From an uncultured Methanosarcinales archaeon (GTDB lineage Archaea; Halobacteriota; Methanosarcinia; Methanotrichales; Methanotrichaceae), in the NCBI GenBank assembly GCA_937864385.1, contig CALMJN010000045.1, forward strand, positions 1-10,057: DNA of 10,057 nt, in the 5' to 3' direction. The translations under genes were made by a program, and so were the position numbers. This document shows, piece by piece, positions 3,427-10,057 of the stretch (position 1 is the stretch's first letter; every line of letters begins with the position of its first letter). Under the pieces are notes generated by a model. That model was not told the DNA's origin. It saw only the letters and a list, made by a program, of their open reading frames with translations, and searched no databases.

Positions 3427-3476
3427 TATGAAAAAATAATATTGATTGCATTAAATATTCTTCGTGCGCAGTAGCC

Positions 3477-3484
3477 TTTTATAT
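3477..3484 (+). promoter_or_regulatory. TATA box candidate for the CBS/RNA ligase operon
   Basis: TTTTATAT lies in the 107-nt gap between moaB and the first CBS gene and resembles the archaeal TTTATATA box. A start about 25 nt downstream (near 3506) gives a leader of roughly 28 nt that includes GGGGGA at 3518-3523, 10 nt before the ATG at 3534. A second AT-rich run, ATATAAA at 3504-3510, would instead place the start at the ATG itself. The rest of the gap shows no gene or hairpin I can support. Confidence 0.5.
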
Positions 3485-3533
3485 GATTAGCACTCTGGTA
3501 AGGATATAAAGCTATCCGGGGGAAGATTGGCCA

Positions 3534-4088
3534 ATGGAGACGGAGATTCCAGTGCGAGATATAATGACCCGACCGGTTATCACGGCCGGTGCCGACTTGG
3601 ACATATTAAGCGCTGCCAAGAAGATGGGCTCGGCCAATGTGGGCAGCCTGATCATAACTGCCGAAGGCAATACCATAGGCATTTTAACCGAAAGAGACCT
3701 GGTCAAGAAGATCCTGGCCGAGGGAAAAGATCCCCGTGCTGTCAAGATAGCTGAGATCATGAGCTCTCCAGTTGTCTCCATTGAACCTGATGCCAGCCTA
3801 CGCGAAGCTGCAGCCCTGATGCTTCGCTCCGGAGTAAAACGGCTGCCGGTTATAGCCAACGGAAGGCTGGTGGGGATAATCACAGATACCGATCTGGCCT
3901 CGGGCTCCTCTGTAGGCATGAACGATATTTTAAGCGACCTATTGGAGATGCACCGGGAGAGCGTTCACTTTGAAACGCCCCAGGGACTGACAAGGGGCAT
4001 ATGCGAGGTTTGCGGCATGCTATCCGATTCCCTGGAGAACGTTGATGGGCAACTGCTCTGCTGGAGCTGCAGGGACGGGAAAAGATAG
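3534..4088 (+). CDS. CBS-domain pair with C-terminal zinc ribbon
   Basis: This 184-residue protein has two CBS motifs forming one Bateman module (about 6-62 and 72-126) and a C-terminal zinc ribbon with CEVC at 157-160 and CWSC at 176-179. Both CBS motifs keep the ribose-contact signature (GILTERD 49-55, GIITDTD 114-120), so an adenine nucleotide or related ligand is likely bound. There is no catalytic domain. It heads the five-gene CBS cluster and is separated by 32 nt from the next gene. The zinc ribbon could contact RNA, DNA or a partner protein, making this a candidate regulatory output of the cluster (inference). The ATG start has a G-rich GGGGGA 10 nt upstream. Confidence 0.9.
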   Translation: METEIPVRDIMTRPVITAGADLDILSAAKKMGSANVGSLIITAEGNTIGILTERDLVKKILAEGKDPRAVKIAEIMSSPVVSIEPDASLREAAALMLRSGVKRLPVIANGRLVGIITDTDLASGSSVGMNDILSDLLEMHRESVHFETPQGLTRGICEVCGMLSDSLENVDGQLLCWSCRDGKR

Positions 4089-4107
4089 AATATAATCGCT
4101 GGACCGC

Positions 4108-4112
4108 GGAGG
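4108..4112 (+). promoter_or_regulatory. Shine-Dalgarno site deciding a TTG start
   Basis: GGAGG lies 8 nt upstream of the TTG at 4121-4123. The peptide from that TTG, MLVEDIMSRDPLYV, aligns with the usual first residues of a CBS motif (VKDIM...), so the TTG is preferred over internal ATG codons. Confidence 0.6.
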
Positions 4113-4120
4113 AATCGCAT

Positions 4121-4897
4121 TTGTTAGTCGAAGACATTATGTCCAGAGATCCTCTCTACGTCGAGGATTCCACATATCTCACCAAAGCGCGTCAGATTAT
4201 CAGAGACAATCATGTACGCGGATTGCCGGTACTGAGCAACAAGGGCACCGTCCTGGGGATTGTCACCAACCAGGATATGCTGAGAGTGACCTCGACCAAG
4301 TCAAATGTGACTGTGTCCGGTTATGTGGTCTCGGTTCCCACTGTGACTGGAAAGATGCCAGTTCTAGATGCCGCCAAACTTATGCTCAGAGAAAAGAAGG
4401 GTCTCCTTCCGGTCATCGAGTCCGAGGAAAAACCGGTGCTCAAGGGTGTTGTGAGCCTTTTGGACGTGTTTATGAACATCGATTTGGAGAGAATTCCTGA
4501 GAAACAGGTATTGGAGATCATGACCACCAAGGTTGTAACCACTCGCCCCGATGATCACATAACCAGGATCTGGGATCTCATGATCGAGGAGGACTTCACC
4601 GGCCTTCCCGTGGTCAAGGACGACAGGACAATAGGGATGATCACCAGATTTGATATGCTGAAAGGCACGGCCAGGATAGGTAAAGAGAGTGAGAGAAGGC
4701 CTTCGGACTCGATGCAGATGCCTGTAGAGAAATTTATGAGCACGCCGCTATACAGCGTAAAGCCTGAAGATAGCGTGTGCTCGGTCATAGAGCTTATGCT
4801 CAAGCATGACGTTGGCAGGATGTCTGTGGTAGACGATGGAATGCTGGTGGGAATTGTGGACAGAAATGATCTGATAAAATGCTACCTTGGTGAGTGA
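4121..4897 (+). CDS. Four-CBS-motif protein (second of cluster)
   Basis: This 258-residue protein is made only of CBS motifs, about 3-56, 66-120, 130-184 and 200-256, i.e. two Bateman modules. The ribose-contact segments are GIVTNQD, GVVSLLD, GMITRFD and GIVDRND; in the last the usual Thr/Ser is Asp. CBS modules bind AMP, ADP, ATP or related ligands and usually regulate a partner protein or domain; none is fused here. The start is TTG with GGAGG 8 nt upstream. The stop TGA at 4895-4897 is two bases before the preferred ATG of the next gene, so the two are almost certainly co-translated. Older annotations call such proteins IMP dehydrogenase-related, but the catalytic barrel is absent. Confidence 0.9.
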   Translation: MLVEDIMSRDPLYVEDSTYLTKARQIIRDNHVRGLPVLSNKGTVLGIVTNQDMLRVTSTKSNVTVSGYVVSVPTVTGKMPVLDAAKLMLREKKGLLPVIESEEKPVLKGVVSLLDVFMNIDLERIPEKQVLEIMTTKVVTTRPDDHITRIWDLMIEEDFTGLPVVKDDRTIGMITRFDMLKGTARIGKESERRPSDSMQMPVEKFMSTPLYSVKPEDSVCSVIELMLKHDVGRMSVVDDGMLVGIVDRNDLIKCYLGE

Positions 4898-4899
4898 AG

Positions 4900-5877
4900 A
4901 TGAGCAAAGGACCAATGACGGGAAAGGATGTAACCAGGATTCCCCAAAAGAGCGATCGAATGCCTGTTGCCCCTGGATCGGGGGAGAGAGCGCCCCTTCA
5001 ATTCGACTCCAGAAATGCCAAGAGGGCGAGCAATGTGGTGGGAGTGGCATCGCCGGATGTGGTCACCGTGCCGCCTACCACCACCATCATGGGCGCCATA
5101 AAGACCATGATATTCTACGGCTTCTCCCGGCTGCCCATAGCCGATCCCGGCACCAAGAGGCTGATAGGATTTGTCACCTCGGTCGATGTAGTTGATTTCC
5201 TGGGAGGAGGGCTGCGGCATAATCTCCTGGCCGAGAAGTATGGAGGAAACATCTACACCGCCATAAACGCCGACATCAGAGACATCATGAGCACCAATCT
5301 CACCTATGCCGACGACAAGGCCTCATTAAATGACGTACTGAAGCTGATGTACGAGAGAAATGTGGGAGGCCTGCCCATATTGGACGATGATCTCCGGATC
5401 AAGGCCATAATCACCGAAGAGGATTTCGTGCGCTTCTGCCGCGGCCTGGATACTGGGCTGGATGTGGAGTCATTCATGAGCCCCAATGTGGTGACCGCTC
5501 CCGCTCAGACCACCATCGAGAAGATGACCAGGATGATCATCCAGAAGGGATTTCGGCGCATGCCGGTGGTCCAGGACGGAGTGCTGATGGGCATGGTCAC
5601 CGCATCGGATATAATGAAGTATCTGGGTGGAGGAGAGGCCTTCCAGAAGGTCATCACCGGCGATGTCACCGAGGTCATGAAGCAGCCCATAAAAAGCCTT
5701 ATAAAGAGGAGCCTTCTGGCCACAGAGAGGAAGGCTGACCTGGGCCAAGCAGCCAGGAAGATGATGGATAACGACATCGGATCTCTGCCGGTCATGGACC
5801 GGGGGTCTTTGGCCGGCATTCTGACTGAGAGAGACTACGTAAGAGCTTTGGCCGAGAACAGAGGAATTCTACCATGA
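4900..5877 (+). CDS. Four-CBS-motif protein with N-terminal extension (third of cluster)
   Basis: This is a 325-residue protein with four CBS motifs at about 47-100, 125-180, 188-243 and 255-319, after a 45-residue polar, basic, probably disordered extension rich in Lys, Arg, Pro and Gly. All four motifs retain the ribose Asp (GFVTSVD, AIITEED, GMVTASD, GILTERD), so this member appears best equipped for nucleotide binding. I chose ATG 4900 because GGTGAG (4889-4894) is 5 nt upstream; a GTG at 4894 overlapping the previous stop is the alternative and adds two residues. Its stop overlaps the next start as ATGA. There is no catalytic domain or membrane segment. The target it regulates is unknown. 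Confidence 0.89.
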   Translation: MSKGPMTGKDVTRIPQKSDRMPVAPGSGERAPLQFDSRNAKRASNVVGVASPDVVTVPPTTTIMGAIKTMIFYGFSRLPIADPGTKRLIGFVTSVDVVDFLGGGLRHNLLAEKYGGNIYTAINADIRDIMSTNLTYADDKASLNDVLKLMYERNVGGLPILDDDLRIKAIITEEDFVRFCRGLDTGLDVESFMSPNVVTAPAQTTIEKMTRMIIQKGFRRMPVVQDGVLMGMVTASDIMKYLGGGEAFQKVITGDVTEVMKQPIKSLIKRSLLATERKADLGQAARKMMDNDIGSLPVMDRGSLAGILTERDYVRALAENRGILP

Positions 5878-6734
5878 TCATAAAAAAAGTCAAAGACTAC
5901 ATGAACGCTCCCATATATGTCATCGAGCGAAATGAGCCCATACAGAGAGCCCGGAATCTGATGTTCAAGTACGGCATCGGCAGGCTGCCGGTGATGGATG
6001 AGGGACGTCTGGTGGGCATTGTCACCAAATACGATATCACTAACCGGCTCAACCAGGCCGCGCCGGAGTGGCGCCGCAGGCCCATAGACAAGGTTCCCAT
6101 CCAGGTGGTTATGACCGAGAAGCCCATCACCATATTCCCCGATGCCACCATGCCCCAGGCGGCAGAGCTTCTCATTGAAAACAATATATCCGGGCTTCCC
6201 GTGGAGCGCGATAGCCAGATCGCGGGAATGATCACCTCCAGGGATATGATGAGATACTTCTCCGAGCAGGACATCAAGGCCACCGTGGGAGACCTCATGA
6301 CCAGGAATATCCTGGCGGTTCACCGCCACCATACCATAGGCCATGTCCTGGAGGAGATGAATGTGCAGGGGCAGAGCCGGGCTCTGGTCTACGAGGACAA
6401 TAACACACCTGTGGGCATTGTGACTCGCTCCGGCCTCACCTTTTCAGAGATCATGGGGCCGAAGGACGAGATGGAAACCAAGAACATCAAGATGACTCGA
6501 AAGGAGAGCCTTGCCGGCAGAAAGCAGTACCGCTATATCAAGCAGATGCCTTTTGTGGCCGAGGACATCATGACTGCGCCCATTTTCACCATTGGTGCGG
6601 AGGAGAAGGCGGTGGTCGCCAGCCATATGCTTGTCGAGAAAAGCATCATAGGAATGCCGGTGGTGGACAAGGATGAGGTAGTGGGCTACTTCTCTGCCGA
6701 TGAGATCATTGCTGAGATAGGGAGGTGGAAGTAA
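5874..6734 (+). CDS. Four-CBS-motif protein (fourth of cluster)
   Basis: This is a 286-residue protein with CBS motifs at about 5-58, 74-130, 136-192 and 227-283. The first two keep the ribose Asp (GIVTKYD, GMITSRD); the third and fourth have lost it (GIVTRSG, GYFSADE), so only the N-terminal module seems a canonical nucleotide site. A basic linker of about 34 residues, roughly 193-226 and rich in Lys and Arg, separates motifs three and four. The ATG overlaps the previous stop (ATGA) and is preceded by GAGGAA 7 nt upstream. The stop is immediately followed by the next start. No enzymatic domain is present. Confidence 0.89.
   Translation: MIIKKVKDYMNAPIYVIERNEPIQRARNLMFKYGIGRLPVMDEGRLVGIVTKYDITNRLNQAAPEWRRRPIDKVPIQVVMTEKPITIFPDATMPQAAELLIENNISGLPVERDSQIAGMITSRDMMRYFSEQDIKATVGDLMTRNILAVHRHHTIGHVLEEMNVQGQSRALVYEDNNTPVGIVTRSGLTFSEIMGPKDEMETKNIKMTRKESLAGRKQYRYIKQMPFVAEDIMTAPIFTIGAEEKAVVASHMLVEKSIIGMPVVDKDEVVGYFSADEIIAEIGRWK
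6721..6727 (+). promoter_or_regulatory. Strong Shine-Dalgarno inside the preceding CBS gene
   Basis: GGAGGTG, a near-perfect match to the 16S anti-Shine-Dalgarno, lies 7 nt before the ATG at 6735 and within the last codons of the preceding CBS gene. The two genes abut with no spacer, so the site allows efficient restart on one mRNA. Confidence 0.65.
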
Positions 6735-7514
6735 ATGCAGGTTAAAGACATCATGAGCGAGCCGGTGAAAATAGACAAATCGGAGCGGCTGGGCCATGCC
6801 CTGGATCAGATGGAGAAGAACGATCTCCGAAGGCTTCTGGTCACCAATAAGGATAAGCTGGGCGGGGTGATCACCACCAGGCAGATCGCCAGGGTGCTGG
6901 GAGCCCGAAAGTCCCTGGGAATGCCCGCCTCATCTCTGCATGTGGCCTCCGCCACCATGGACTCTCTGATCAAGGTGCTTCCCGATATGCAGGTTGATGA
7001 TGCCATGGCTTTGATGCAGAAGACAGGCGTCCTGGTGGTCATGGATGGAGAGAAGGTCATGGGATGGGTTCGGCCCAGGGAGGTGCTCTCTGCGGTCAAG
7101 GTGAGCGGCACCGCAGGCGACGCTATGAGGGTCCCCCTCACCGTCAACCCCAACGACCGGCTGGTCCATGCCCGGCGCATGATGCTGGACCGGGATGTAG
7201 GACGCCTTCCGGTGGTGGAGAGCGGCCGTCTGGTGGGAATCATATCCGAGAGGGATATCGCCAGGTCCATGCGAGCCTTCCGGGATCTCAATGACACCGC
7301 CAGCAAGCAGTATGCCAGAATCTTCAATATACTGGTCTCCGATGTCATGACCCACGATGTTCAGTATGTTTATGTGGACACTCCCCTGGAAGAGGTCAAG
7401 AAGATCATCCTGGAGGAGGACCGGGGAGGACTGCCGGTCTTGAACCGCAGGGAAGAGGTGGTGGGCATGATCACCCGCCGGTCCATACTGGATTATCTGG
7501 CGAGGACCAGATGA
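6735..7514 (+). CDS. Four-CBS-motif protein, degenerate ligand sites (fifth of cluster)
   Basis: This is a 259-residue protein with four CBS motifs at about 2-55, 66-121, 125-180 and 200-257. Only the third keeps the canonical segment (GIISERD); the others read GVITTRQ, GWVRPRE and GMITRRS and lack the ribose-contact Asp. The protein may therefore act mainly as a scaffold or hetero-oligomer partner for the other CBS proteins (inference). It abuts the previous gene and its TGA overlaps the ATG of the RNA ligase gene (ATGA, 7511-7514), tying its translation to that enzyme. No other domain is seen. Confidence 0.89.
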   Translation: MQVKDIMSEPVKIDKSERLGHALDQMEKNDLRRLLVTNKDKLGGVITTRQIARVLGARKSLGMPASSLHVASATMDSLIKVLPDMQVDDAMALMQKTGVLVVMDGEKVMGWVRPREVLSAVKVSGTAGDAMRVPLTVNPNDRLVHARRMMLDRDVGRLPVVESGRLVGIISERDIARSMRAFRDLNDTASKQYARIFNILVSDVMTHDVQYVYVDTPLEEVKKIILEEDRGGLPVLNRREEVVGMITRRSILDYLARTR

Positions 7515-8632
7515 ATCTGGCCCGAGTGGCACAGATACTGGGAATAACAGAAAGCAGGCTGCAAGGCCTGCAAGAGACCATAATTCGAGAGTCTGCCTGG
7601 CCCGAGCCCCGACTGATCCGCTTTGAGAAGGAGGCATCGGGGGTCGAGGCAGGCACGGTTGTTTTTGAAAACGGCGATATTGTCTTCGGCTATCCCAAGA
7701 TCCGCCGGCCCCTGTTCCTGGCTCCGGCCATAGAGCGCCACTTCTCCGGGGCGGTGGCTGTCGAGGAGAAGATGAACGGCCACAATGTGCGGGTCCTGTC
7801 CGTGAGCGGCGAGACCGTGGCCTTGAGCAGAGGCGGATTCATCTGCCCCTTCTCCACCGAGGTGGCCCGGAGGCTGGTTCCTGAGGAGATTTTCGAGAAG
7901 AATCCCAACCTGGTTTTATGCGGGGAGATGGTGGGGCCGGAGAATCCCTATGTGGCCAAGGAGATCTATCCCACCGACAGCATAGACTTCTATCTCTTCG
8001 ATGTGGCGGAGAAGAACCGCAAGGGGACAGCGGGTGTGCATAAGACCCACGAGCTGGCGGCGCTTTTCGGACTCAAGGCCACCGCTTTTCTGGGCCAGTT
8101 TCAGAAGGATATAGCGGCGGAGAAGATCCGGCAGATTGTGCTCCGCCTGGACCGGCAGGGCCGGGAGGGAGTGGTGCTCAAGGACCCGGAAAACCTGGTC
8201 TCCCCCATCAAGTACACCAGCTCGGCCACCAACTGCAGCGACATTGCCATAGGCTTTCGATACTACAACGATTATGCCACGGACTTCTTTCTCTCCCGGG
8301 TGGTGCGGGAGGGCTTTCAGTCCGTGGAGTGGAATGAGTCGGAGGAGGAGAGACGGGAGAGGGCGCAGCGGATAGGAGAGAGCATTCTCTTTCCCATGAT
8401 TGAGACCATAGAAAAGAAGCGCGCCGGGGACAATATTGTGCAGAGGGTCACAATTCACGTTCGGAGCCTGCAGACGGCCAGGGACTTCGAGTATCACCTG
8501 CGCCGCAGCGGGATTCGGGCCATATTCGATCCACCCATGCCGGACGATGAGGGCTATCAGATCGGAATCACTAAGCTGGTCATGAGCACAAATGATAAGA
8601 CCCAGGCGCTCTTAGACGGTGAGATGTGGTAG
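7511..8632 (+). CDS. ATP-dependent RNA ligase, Pab1020/Rnl3 family
   Basis: This 373-residue protein is full length for the archaeal Pab1020-type (TIGR01209) RNA ligase, a homodimeric enzyme known to seal or circularise single-stranded RNA through a lysyl-AMP intermediate. The covalent-nucleotidyl motif I is KMNGHNVR (87-94; K87), motif III lies around LCGEMVGPENP (136-145) with DFYLFDV (159-165) as IIIa, motif IV is REGVVLKD (218-225) and motif V is SPIKY (231-235). The C-terminal third is the family-specific dimerisation/accessory region. The ATG overlaps the stop of the last CBS gene and has GAGG 5 nt upstream. It sits at the end of the CBS array, so ligase activity or its partners may be tied to nucleotide sensing (inference). 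Natural substrates in methanogens are not settled. Confidence 0.93.
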   Translation: MNLARVAQILGITESRLQGLQETIIRESAWPEPRLIRFEKEASGVEAGTVVFENGDIVFGYPKIRRPLFLAPAIERHFSGAVAVEEKMNGHNVRVLSVSGETVALSRGGFICPFSTEVARRLVPEEIFEKNPNLVLCGEMVGPENPYVAKEIYPTDSIDFYLFDVAEKNRKGTAGVHKTHELAALFGLKATAFLGQFQKDIAAEKIRQIVLRLDRQGREGVVLKDPENLVSPIKYTSSATNCSDIAIGFRYYNDYATDFFLSRVVREGFQSVEWNESEEERRERAQRIGESILFPMIETIEKKRAGDNIVQRVTIHVRSLQTARDFEYHLRRSGIRAIFDPPMPDDEGYQIGITKLVMSTNDKTQALLDGEMW

Positions 8633-8645
8633 AGGGCCGAGGATT

Positions 8646-9362
8646 ATGAGTGAGATTGCAGACATAGAGATGCAGGGGCATCTCATCGACTCCCAGATGA
8701 TGACCCGGGTCCTGGACAAGATCATGGACATGGGCGGGGAGTTCGAGATCAAGAACTTTCAGATAGGCCAGAAGAAGAATGACACCAGCTATGTCCAGAT
8801 CACAGTAACCGGCGAGGATGCCGGCCATCTTGACCGGATACTCCTGGAGCTGCATGCGCTGGGAGCCCGGCTGGTGGAGATGGAGGATGCCAGGACCGGC
8901 GTCTCGCCGGGGGATATGGTCGTGCCCCGGGGATTCTACTCCACCACCAACCATCCCACCTACGTCCGCTACAAGGGAACCTGGGTGGAGGTGGAGCACA
9001 ACCACATGGACTGCCTGATTGTGCTGGAAGACGGCAGGGCCCGCTGCACCCCCATCGGCCACATCAAGAAGGGAGACCGGGTGGTCATCGGCACCGCTGG
9101 AGTTAAAGTCGTTCCCCCGGAGCGGCCCAGGGAGAAGACCTTCTTCGGATTCATGTCCAATGAGGTCAGCTCGGAGCGGCCCAGCGGGGAGCTGGTGCGC
9201 CAGCTTGCTTCTGAGATCGTGCGGACCAAGACCGCAGGGGGCAAGATCGCCCTGGTCTGCGGCCCGGCGCTGGTGCACACCGGTGCGGCTCCGGCGCTAG
9301 CAAGGCTGATCCGGGAGGGTTATGTGGACGTCCTTCTGGCCGGCAATGCCGTGGCGGTGCAG
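8646..9362 (+). CDS. TIGR00300 family protein (ornithine cyclodeaminase-like), 3' end missing
   Basis: About 239 residues match the N-terminal and central part of the TIGR00300 (LOR/SDH-like) family, usually around 400 residues. Methanogen members of this family have been reported as ornithine cyclodeaminases converting ornithine to proline. Visible conserved stretches are GHLIDSQMMTRVLDKI near the start, GDMVVPRGFYSTTNHPTY (about 88-105), HNHMDCLIVL (116-125) and CGPALVHTGAAPALARLI followed by DVLLAGNAVAV. Family members continue with a His-Asp-Ile-Glu-type motif and the NAD-binding half; here the sequence switches to an unrelated epimerase at about 9360. The ATG has GAGGG 9 nt upstream and lies 13 nt after the RNA ligase stop, so it belongs to that operon. 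The 3' truncation is best read as an assembly break, not a real mutation. Confidence 0.85.
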
Positions 9363-9368
9363 GGCGAC
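9350..9368. other. Join 1: TIGR00300 to epimerase
   Basis: Upstream residues LLAGNAVAV are TIGR00300-like, where a His-Asp-Ile-Glu-type motif is expected next; downstream VQGDLCNASQLEA is a classic SDR-epimerase segment. The change falls around GTGCAGGGC (9357-9365), in frame. No inverted repeats, target duplication or integrase trace flank it. Confidence 0.7.
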
Positions 9369-9740
9369 TTGTGCAATGCATCGCAGCTTGAAGCCTGCTT
9401 TAAGAAGTATGCGCCCTTTGATGTGGTCTACCACGTTGCCGCCCAGCTGGCCCATAATGTGAAAGATAAAAACTTTCTCTGGCAGTCAAATGTGGAGGGG
9501 ACCCGGCGGCTGGTGGAAATGTCGGTCAAGTACAAGGTGCCGCACCTGGTCTTTACCTCGAGCAACTGCCTCTGGGGCGTACCCATGGGGAAAAAAATCG
9601 GAGAGGCGGAGCCGCCGCACCCGGTGGAAATTTACGGCCAGTCCAAGTGGGAAGGGGAAAAGATACTGCTCGGCTATAAGGATTCACTTGTCCTGACCAT
9701 CATTCGCTGTCCCACCATTACCGATGCAGGGAGGCTCGGC
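9363..9740 (+). CDS. Internal fragment of an NAD-dependent epimerase/dehydratase (extended SDR)
   Basis: About 125 residues match the middle of an NAD-dependent epimerase/dehydratase acting on nucleotide sugars or similar substrates. Seen are GDLCNASQLEACF, the VVYHVAA segment (near 9429), NVEGTRRLVE, the TSSN catalytic Ser region (near 9553) and the YGQSK motif (YxxxK, near 9633), then IIRCPTITDAGRLGLLAIL. The first 55 or so residues with the GxxGxxG Rossmann loop and the C-terminal substrate half are absent. There is no start codon or ribosome site of its own: it continues the TIGR00300 frame. It uses AAA, ATT and GAA codons more than the flank that follows. Probably a bacterial sequence joined by misassembly. 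Confidence 0.75.
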
Positions 9741-9755
9741 CTGCTGGCCATACTC
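9735..9755. other. Join 2: epimerase to DUF481 protein
   Basis: GRLGLLAIL suits an epimerase on the left, while LLAILAIAPAAGWGQ suits the end of a signal peptide on the right, so the segment CTGCTGGCCATACTC (9741-9755) fits both genes. A shared stretch of this kind is what a k-mer assembler can mistake for overlap. Confidence 0.65.
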
Positions 9756-10057
9756 GCGATCGCCCCGGCCGCCGGATGGGGCCAAAATGCGGAAAAGCCC
9801 GGGCTCCTCGGTCCGTGGAAGGCCACGGCCGAGCTCAGCTACGTCGTCACGGGCGGCAATACGGCCACCTCGGCCCTCAGCTTCGGGACCTCGTTCACCC
9901 GGAAGTGGGCCAACGACACGCTCTTGATCAAGAGCTACGTCATGAAGAGCAATGCCACGACGACCACGCGGACCGCGCGGGGCACGGAGGCCGATTTCGA
10001 GGTCCTCGAGCAATCGATCACCCGGAAAGTGGCCGAGAACTACCTCCTGGCCGGCCA
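9741..10057 (+). CDS. N-terminal fragment of a DUF481 (YdiY-like) outer-membrane protein
   Basis: The frame continues as the tail of a signal peptide (LLAILAIAPAAGWGQ) and then about 90 residues of DUF481, a bacterial outer-membrane beta-barrel family of unknown role: WKATAELSYVVTGGNT, ALSFGTSFTRKW, a TTTRTARGTEADFEV stretch and SITRKVAENYLLAG at the window edge. The gene runs off the window. Base use changes sharply: high GC, Arg almost only CGG/CGC, Ile almost only ATC, with the archaeal AGG/AGA and ATA codons gone. An outer-membrane protein has no place in a methanogen, so this is foreign DNA, perhaps from an Acidobacteria-like bacterium (weak inference). Its own start codon is lost at the join. 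Confidence 0.72.
   Translation, partial: MLAILAIAPAAGWGQNAEKPGLLGPWKATAELSYVVTGGNTATSALSFGTSFTRKWANDTLLIKSYVMKSNATTTTRTARGTEADFEVLEQSITRKVAENYLLAG

What the first reader, a model, noticed from the sequence alone, without database searches (positions are those of the whole stretch)
3534..8632. Five tandem CBS-only genes translationally coupled to an RNA ligase
Five consecutive genes encode 18 CBS motifs with no catalytic domain other than one zinc ribbon, and the last overlaps an Rnl3-type RNA ligase by 4 nt. Spacings are 32, 2, -4, 0 and -4 nt, so one transcript is near certain. CBS modules sense adenine nucleotides, and the ligase consumes ATP and forms AMP. A plausible undescribed system is a CBS hetero-complex that gates RNA sealing or circularisation by energy state. 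From memory, similar CBS strings (IMP dehydrogenase-related) lie next to the RNA ligase gene in Methanothermobacter; this must be verified.
Basis: partly seen in the sequence, partly recalled or inferred. Interest (0 to 1): 0.78.

Follow-up and report, generated by a model that had tools for sequence, protein, structure and literature searches.

The report
Ribosome-hibernation operon carrying an RNA ligase
In a methane-producing archaeon, a run of five genes, four of them close relatives of proteins seen bound to ribosomes in a related microbe, ends in an overlapping gene for an RNA-sealing enzyme, which suggests that these microbes may store ribosomes and maintain translation RNAs with one set of genes.

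Summary
Five consecutive genes (3534-7514) carry 18 CBS repeats, and the last overlaps an Rnl3 RNA ligase (7511-8632) by 4 nt. The host is Methanothrix-like. The order A-B-C-D-E-ligase recurs across Methanosarcinia and other families of the phylum; a further family (f8, probably Archaeoglobi) has A-C-ligase. Of 119 ligase genomes that also hold C and/or E, 116 have them close together. On the ligase tree this is one ancestral linkage.

The proposed function, CBS proteins gating RNA sealing, is not supported. B, C, D and E match, at 205-267 bits, the CBS chains of the Methanosarcina acetivorans 70S ribosome entries titled SriA-D (9ZNF, 9ZNG, 9ZNI). A 2026 paper proposes such CBS clusters as ribosome hibernation factors. 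C occurs without the ligase in 90 of 295 genomes, the ligase without C or E in 15.

What seems undescribed is the ligase and zinc-ribbon gene A in a hibernation operon. The ligase tracks the nuclease HARP (132 of 134 genomes): near HARP where C and E are missing (13 of 15), not where they are present (0 of 119). Best reading: RNA upkeep co-expressed with ribosome dormancy. Direct CBS-ligase contact is undemonstrated.

The parts
3534..4088 (+). Gene A: two CBS repeats plus C-terminal zinc ribbon (CxxC...CxxC), 184 aa
   Evidence: best PDB match MJ1225 at 95.5 bits, best ribosome-bound chain 9zni_6 at 77.8, Ta0289 (1pvm) at 56.7, so no orthologue-level match
4121..4897 (+). Gene B: four CBS repeats, 258 aa; counterpart of 9ZNF chain 4 (SriA/SriB complex)
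   Evidence: 205 bits, E 1e-59; one search gives the entry title
4894..5877 (+). Gene C: four CBS repeats with an N-terminal tail of about 45 aa predicted disordered, 327 aa; counterpart of 9ZNF chain 5 (SriA/SriB complex)
5874..6734 (+). Gene D: four CBS repeats, 286 aa; counterpart of 9ZNI chain 6 (SriC/SriD complex)
   Evidence: 267 bits, E 1e-78
6735..7514 (+). Gene E: four CBS repeats, 259 aa; counterpart of chain 7 of 9ZNG/9ZNI (SriD)
7511..8632 (+). ATP-dependent RNA ligase, Rnl3 family (TIGR01209; PF09414 + PF18330), 373 aa, overlapping E by ATGA
3470..3533 (+). AT-rich leader with TATA-like stretches and a GGGGGA run before gene A; possible operon promoter
   Evidence: read by eye only; not tested

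Best explanation
This is an archaeal ribosome-hibernation operon with an RNA ligase attached. Under starvation, B/C and D/E (counterparts of the SriA/SriB and SriC/SriD chains) bind 70S ribosomes, probably in vacant tRNA/mRNA/PTC sites as Dri and HibA do, and stop translation. Their surviving adenylate sites, and possibly the zinc ribbon of A (redox-active in a related protein, recalled), would tie binding or release to cell state. The ligase is made from the same message so that 5'-phosphate/3'-OH breaks or ends in translation-related RNAs (rRNA, C/D box sRNA, tRNA pieces) are sealed or circularised while ribosomes are idle or as they return to work. It probably works with the nuclease HARP, whose presence it follows. 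Shown here: gene content, order conservation, orthology to ribosome-bound chains, co-occurrence with HARP. Inferred: co-transcription, hibernation in this organism, the RNA substrate, nucleotide control.
For: Orthology of B-E to chains in 9ZNF/9ZNG/9ZNI. A uL2 search lists the same entries among ribosomes, and titles name the M. acetivorans 70S ribosome with SriA and SriB, SriC and SriD, or SriD. CBS-module clusters are proposed as hibernation factors in PMC13324472 (sections 11-13). Overlaps: E-ligase ATGA in 36 and GTGA in 3 of the 101 sequences, C-ligase ATGA in 8 of 12 f8 loci (the 36 include duplicate and misbinned loci). 116 of 119 ligase genomes with C and/or E have E starting within 3 kb or C within 7 kb upstream on the same strand. 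Synteny ends at A and at the ligase. An Rnl3 knock-out in Thermococcus kodakarensis loses circular C/D box sRNAs and gains aberrant rRNA fragments, those from 23S mapping near the sarcin-ricin loop (PMC9014305, sections 19-20). Ligase and HARP co-occur: 132 genomes with both, 6 HARP only, 2 ligase only, 155 neither, of 295.
Against: No expression, binding or activity data for this organism. 90 of 295 genomes have C without the ligase, so a CBS cluster does not need it. The ligase also lives beside HARP without CBS genes. The CBS-ligase linkage in the phylum is one event on the ligase tree, so it is not a repeated association. The T. kodakarensis authors doubt direct action on rRNA, had one replicate, and saw no growth defect in rich medium. 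Gene A has no ribosome-bound counterpart in the PDB copy searched. PMC13324472 leaves the role of CM-2 unresolved and saw no clear effect of AMP or ATP on HibA binding to ribosomes, which weakens the energy-sensing step.
Confidence: 0.6

Rival explanations
1. One reading: the CBS proteins form a hetero-complex with the ligase and gate RNA sealing by AMP/ATP.
For: 4-nt overlap and conserved adjacency; 12 of 18 repeats mostly keep the [ST]xxD nucleotide signature.
Against: C without ligase in 90 of 295 genomes, complete A-E clusters without ligase in 11 of 18 loci fetched; ligase without C or E in 15 genomes (one search corrected); B-E orthologues sit on ribosomes; E, the overlapping partner, has lost the signature in 3 of 4 repeats.
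Confidence: 0.1
2. The ligase works only with HARP (RNA end processing), and its place behind the CBS genes is an ancestral operon position that merely supplies a stress-responsive promoter.
For: Near one-to-one co-occurrence with HARP, and HARP within 5 kb in 13 of 15 ligase genomes without C or E; published HARP-Rnl3 link (PMC12153264); one origin of the CBS linkage.
Against: Linkage with CBS genes is kept in nine families of the phylum while nearly all other neighbours change, which asks for more than inertia.
Confidence: 0.25
3. The CBS genes act in something other than hibernation (for example transcription control as HhpR, or enzyme regulation as AMPK-gamma), and ribosome binding in M. 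acetivorans does not carry over.
For: MJ1225 and AMPK-gamma are close folds; a CM-3 member is a transcription regulator (PMC13324472).
Against: Each of B-E has its own ribosome-bound best match, about 75-185 bits above the next different protein (C 266 against 192 for MJ1225; B 205 against 72; D 267 against 85; E 262 against 78).
Confidence: 0.1

Closest known systems
SriA-SriD of Methanosarcina acetivorans (PDB 9ZNF, 9ZNG, 9ZNI)
   Same: Four-CBS proteins B-E are best matched, one each, by chains 4, 5, 6, 7; the pairs in the entries (chains 4+5, 6+7) are gene neighbours here (B+C, D+E)
   Different: No paper found in the library; entries seen only as titles and sequence or fold matches. Which of chains 4 and 5 is named SriA or SriB was not read. 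Ligase and gene A are not in the titles
CM-5/4/1/2 gene cluster (PMC13324472)
   Same: Cluster of four stand-alone CBS-module genes in methanogens, proposed hibernation factors
   Different: The paper's text never mentions an RNA ligase (0 occurrences); its Fig. 7c, which draws the cluster, could not be seen. The mapping of CM numbers to B-E was not determined
Dri (Pyrobaculum calidifontis) and HibA (Thermococcales)
   Same: CBS modules that occupy ribosomal sites (as told in PMC13324472); similar fold for Dri (9e6q/9e7f)
   Different: Dri fuses two modules, HibA fuses a module to HPF/RaiA; here modules are separate genes
MthRnl / Pab1020 / TkoRnl (Rnl3 RNA ligases)
   Same: Same family and motif I as MthRnl and Pab1020
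   Different: The three Rnl papers searched for the word hold no 'CBS'
Ta0289-type CBS-zinc ribbon proteins
   Same: CBS part of gene A matches 1pvm/2qh1, and 3ghd is named a CBS protein fused to a Zn ribbon; that Ta0289 has the same two-part build and redox-active iron is recalled
   Different: Here part of a five-gene CBS cluster; function unknown

Membership tests
Sri / CM archaeal CBS hibernation factors | Sequence orthology to a ribosome-bound CBS chain | tested here: met
   B, C, D, E: 205, 266, 267, 262 bits to 9znf_4, 9znf_5, 9zni_6, 9zng_7. Gene A: no such match
Sri / CM archaeal CBS hibernation factors | Four-CBS module fold | tested here: met
Sri / CM archaeal CBS hibernation factors | Binds ribosomes and stops translation in this organism | not testable with these tools
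   needs cells or purified proteins
Sri / CM archaeal CBS hibernation factors | Replaces HibA (HPF/RaiA domain absent) | tested here: inconclusive
   PF02482 finds nothing in the host genome, but archaeal HPF domains are divergent and the genome is 93% complete
Dri | Two CBS modules fused in one chain of about 650 aa | tested here: not met
   largest CBS ORF 327 aa
HibA | CBS module fused to an HPF/RaiA domain | tested here: not met
   only CBS found by Pfam in A-E, and B-E have no long extra C-terminal part
Rnl3 RNA ligase | TIGR01209 over cut-off, Lig_C domain, motif I lysine | tested here: met
HARP-Rnl3 pair | HARP in the same genome | tested here: met
   G000:C26:3191-3838, 296.9 bits to PF08745
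HARP-Rnl3 pair | HARP within 5 kb of the ligase | tested here: not met
   HARP on contig C26, ligase on C45 (10,057 bases, 489-contig draft); 0 of 119 ligase genomes with C and/or E

The most novel reading that the evidence does not exclude
Dormancy-coupled repair of the translation apparatus: Sri-type CBS proteins park ribosomes and hold or expose broken or unfinished RNA ends, and the co-translated Rnl3 ligase, with HARP trimming ends elsewhere in the cell, reseals rRNA or circularises guide RNAs before ribosomes are released; the adenylate state read by the CBS sites decides when. Gene A, with its zinc ribbon, would be the switch.
Probability: 0.25. Interest if true: 0.85.

Novelty: new variant of a known kind. 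Interest (0 to 1): 0.6.

Why it matters
The biological job of the Rnl3 ligase, known mostly as a laboratory reagent, is unsettled. Its long-kept place at the end of a ribosome-hibernation operon, together with its close co-occurrence with HARP, points to RNA upkeep during dormancy and names a testable substrate class. It also adds a fifth, zinc-ribbon CBS protein to the hibernation gene set, and shows that in this phylum the ligase has two genomic homes: beside HARP, or behind the hibernation genes.

Tried and rejected
Rfam scan of the window: nothing at gathering scores. Archaeal HPF domain (PF02482) in the host genome: nothing.

Caveats on counts. The co-occurrence p-value (1e-73) is not corrected for shared ancestry; one search had used 296 genomes by mistake. 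Strong HARP means over 200 bits; one place per genome was used; G238 has a second strong copy, on another contig than its ligase. Many genomes are drafts, so a HARP gene across a contig break would be missed. In one search the two 'C-LIG GTGA overlaps' of L170/L171 are a script artefact (the genes are 2.2 kb apart) and are not counted. L073/L159, labelled Candidatus Methanosuratincola, is probably a misbinned Methanothrix contig; it is inside the 36 overlaps, as are the duplicates L056/L174 and L060/L175. G108 is adjacent by L120; G154 is unlocated; G224 has the cluster on another contig; G232 has it on the same strand 4.3 kb away. G287 likewise holds C by the table only; its E is adjacent. 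The 90 genomes with C and no ligase are 198 minus 108. The tree holds 57 chosen ligases, not all those found. C and E presence means E 1e-40 or better; the 295 genomes were filtered at 90% completeness. CM numbers were not mapped to B-E. L193 and L196 are 100-base stubs fetched in error. The one paper holding all terms (PMC3710099) was checked by passages: its CBS and RNA ligase mentions are unrelated.
Full report
What is there. The window is contig C45 of a 2.26 Mb draft genome. Its nearest named relatives are Methanothrix (Methanosaeta), with ligase identity up to 96%. Five + strand genes, which I call A to E, span 3534-7514 and carry 18 CBS repeats, all above Pfam's cut-off. They are followed by a ligase gene at 7511-8632 that starts inside E with an ATGA overlap. 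A has two CBS repeats and a zinc ribbon; B, C, D, E have four repeats each. Pfam finds no other domain in A-E. The ligase is TIGR01209 / Rnl3 with its motif I lysine in place.

Is the unit conserved? In Methanotrichaceae, most Methanosarcinaceae loci and several other families of the phylum the order is A-B-C-D-E-ligase, save where a contig ends. Two genomes of 4.1-4.2 Mb, probably Methanosarcina, keep the order with wider gaps (L141, L142). Three loci named Methanolobus and one unnamed (L066, L069, L074, L140) show A, D, E and the ligase but no B or C between; L068 lacks B. In family f8 (12 loci fetched; one contig has the length of the Archaeoglobus fulgidus genome as I recall it, so probably Archaeoglobi) only A-C-ligase is present. 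Four loci of another lineage (L071, L072, L170, L171; it includes a record named Methanopyri archaeon) have A-C, about 2.2 kb, then the ligase; in the one I looked into, L171, an antisense gene lies between. Ten ligase loci of families f12, f17, f21, f22, f26 (probably haloarchaea) and 13 of Thermoproteota have no such cluster within the 8 kb or so fetched; one of these, L169, has a three-CBS gene 1.3 kb away that matches none of the five families well.

How general is the link? In 295 genomes of the phylum at 90% completeness or better, 134 have the ligase over its cut-off, 160 have a match to the E family and 198 to the C family at E 1e-40 or better. Of 119 ligase genomes with C and/or E, 116 have E starting within 3 kb, or C within 7 kb, upstream on the same strand; the three others are told under Tried and rejected. 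Fifteen ligase genomes have neither. Ninety genomes have C without the ligase (198 minus the 108 with both). I fetched 18 such or doubtful loci: 11 hold a complete A-B-C-D-E cluster without ligase, 6 hold parts (two of them pieces of one genome, one with a ligase remnant), and one (L194) is the G232 ligase genome. So the CBS genes form a unit that stands without the ligase. In 38 chosen CBS-linked loci from 10 families only the CBS genes and the ligase recur in all ten; the next neighbours recur in four. On a tree of 57 chosen ligases, the 32 CBS-linked ones of the phylum fall in one well supported set (98/98). I read this as one ancestral linkage kept under selection, not many independent gains.

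Nucleotide sites. Across 45-66 distinct orthologues per gene, the [ST]xxD signature of the adenylate site is kept in both repeats of A (66 of 66), three of B, four of C (the third in 47 of 65), two of D and one of E; the other six repeats have mostly lost it. The motif itself is recalled from general knowledge of CBS domains. This fits energy sensing by A-D more than by E, the gene that overlaps the ligase. Against it, PMC13324472 found AMP binding by the HibA module but no clear effect on ribosome binding.

What the ligase may do. Knock-out of the Thermococcus kodakarensis ligase abolishes circular C/D box sRNAs and yields aberrant rRNA fragments, those of 23S near the sarcin-ricin loop and those of 16S at its 5' end. 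Its authors think action on rRNA may be indirect, had one replicate and saw no growth defect in rich medium (PMC9014305, abstract, passages, sections 19 and 20). A genome-mining paper links Rnl3 to the protein-only RNase P HARP and says all ligase-positive genomes have HARP (PMC12153264, first part of section 3 and passages). I tested this on the same 295 genomes with PF08745, which I took from memory to be the HARP family (the paper prints PF09745): 138 have a match over 200 bits, 132 of them have the ligase, and 2 ligase genomes lack HARP. New here is where the ligase sits: within 5 kb of HARP and on the opposite strand in 13 of 15 ligase genomes without C or E, and in none of the 119 with them (drafts included). 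The host has HARP on another contig. So presence of the ligase follows HARP, while its usual address is the hibernation operon wherever both exist. This favours RNA upkeep timed to dormancy over a CBS switch made for the ligase.

Anatomy and conservation hold, and one transcript is likely but untested. The proposed CBS-ligase energy gate is not excluded but is the weaker reading. The CBS part became known in 2025-2026. I found no mention of the ligase or of gene A as members of the operon in the papers I could search: word counts in PMC13324472, PMC12605026, PMC3514331, PMC9014305, PMC12153264, PMC12918454 and PMC3710099 and library searches. Figures were not visible, and papers outside the library, among them the Dri paper and whatever describes 9ZNF, may already show it.

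Noticed in passing
window 9362-10057: The contig end looks chimeric: similarity to all six Methanothrix relatives compared stops at base 9361, and the ORF switches from an ornithine-cyclodeaminase-like gene (TIGR00300) to a sugar epimerase-like piece.
   Followed up: partly
L010, L012, L013 (ligase of genus g16, same class): The ligase has an in-frame TAG at the same place in all three loci examined; seven of the eight g16 genomes are flagged with one TAG (the other four not examined). Could be read as pyrrolysine.
   Followed up: partly
L192 (G068), 9458-10870: Gene E is in two pieces and only a remnant of the ligase follows, although A-D look whole and HARP is present: ligase and E may be decaying together, or the sequence has errors.
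   Followed up: no
G050:C5:30422-31339 and G248:C9:273333-274259: A second C-type module lies in a 633-aa open frame, suggesting a fused double CBS module like Dri.
   Followed up: no
L121, L124, L133, L134/L135 upstream of gene A: In four families the cluster lies beside genes on the other strand for OapC, OapB and a GTPase; the first two are named origin-associated proteins in Pfam (identified from 60-residue starts of the L121 copies).
   Followed up: partly
genus g17 (Methanolobus-like): G240, G251, G260, G310, G322: C has moved away from the ligase, and in 11 other g17 genomes no C match was found, while E stays beside the ligase.
   Followed up: no
L109 and L110, gene C: The N-terminal tail with the (D)RGPxxFxSR-like motif seen in most other C sequences is absent in the two f8 sequences aligned; the tail may mark a ribosome contact.
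   Followed up: no
L073 / L159: A contig labelled Candidatus Methanosuratincola carries a Methanothrix-like C-D-E-ligase region (72% ligase identity); probably misbinned.
   Followed up: no
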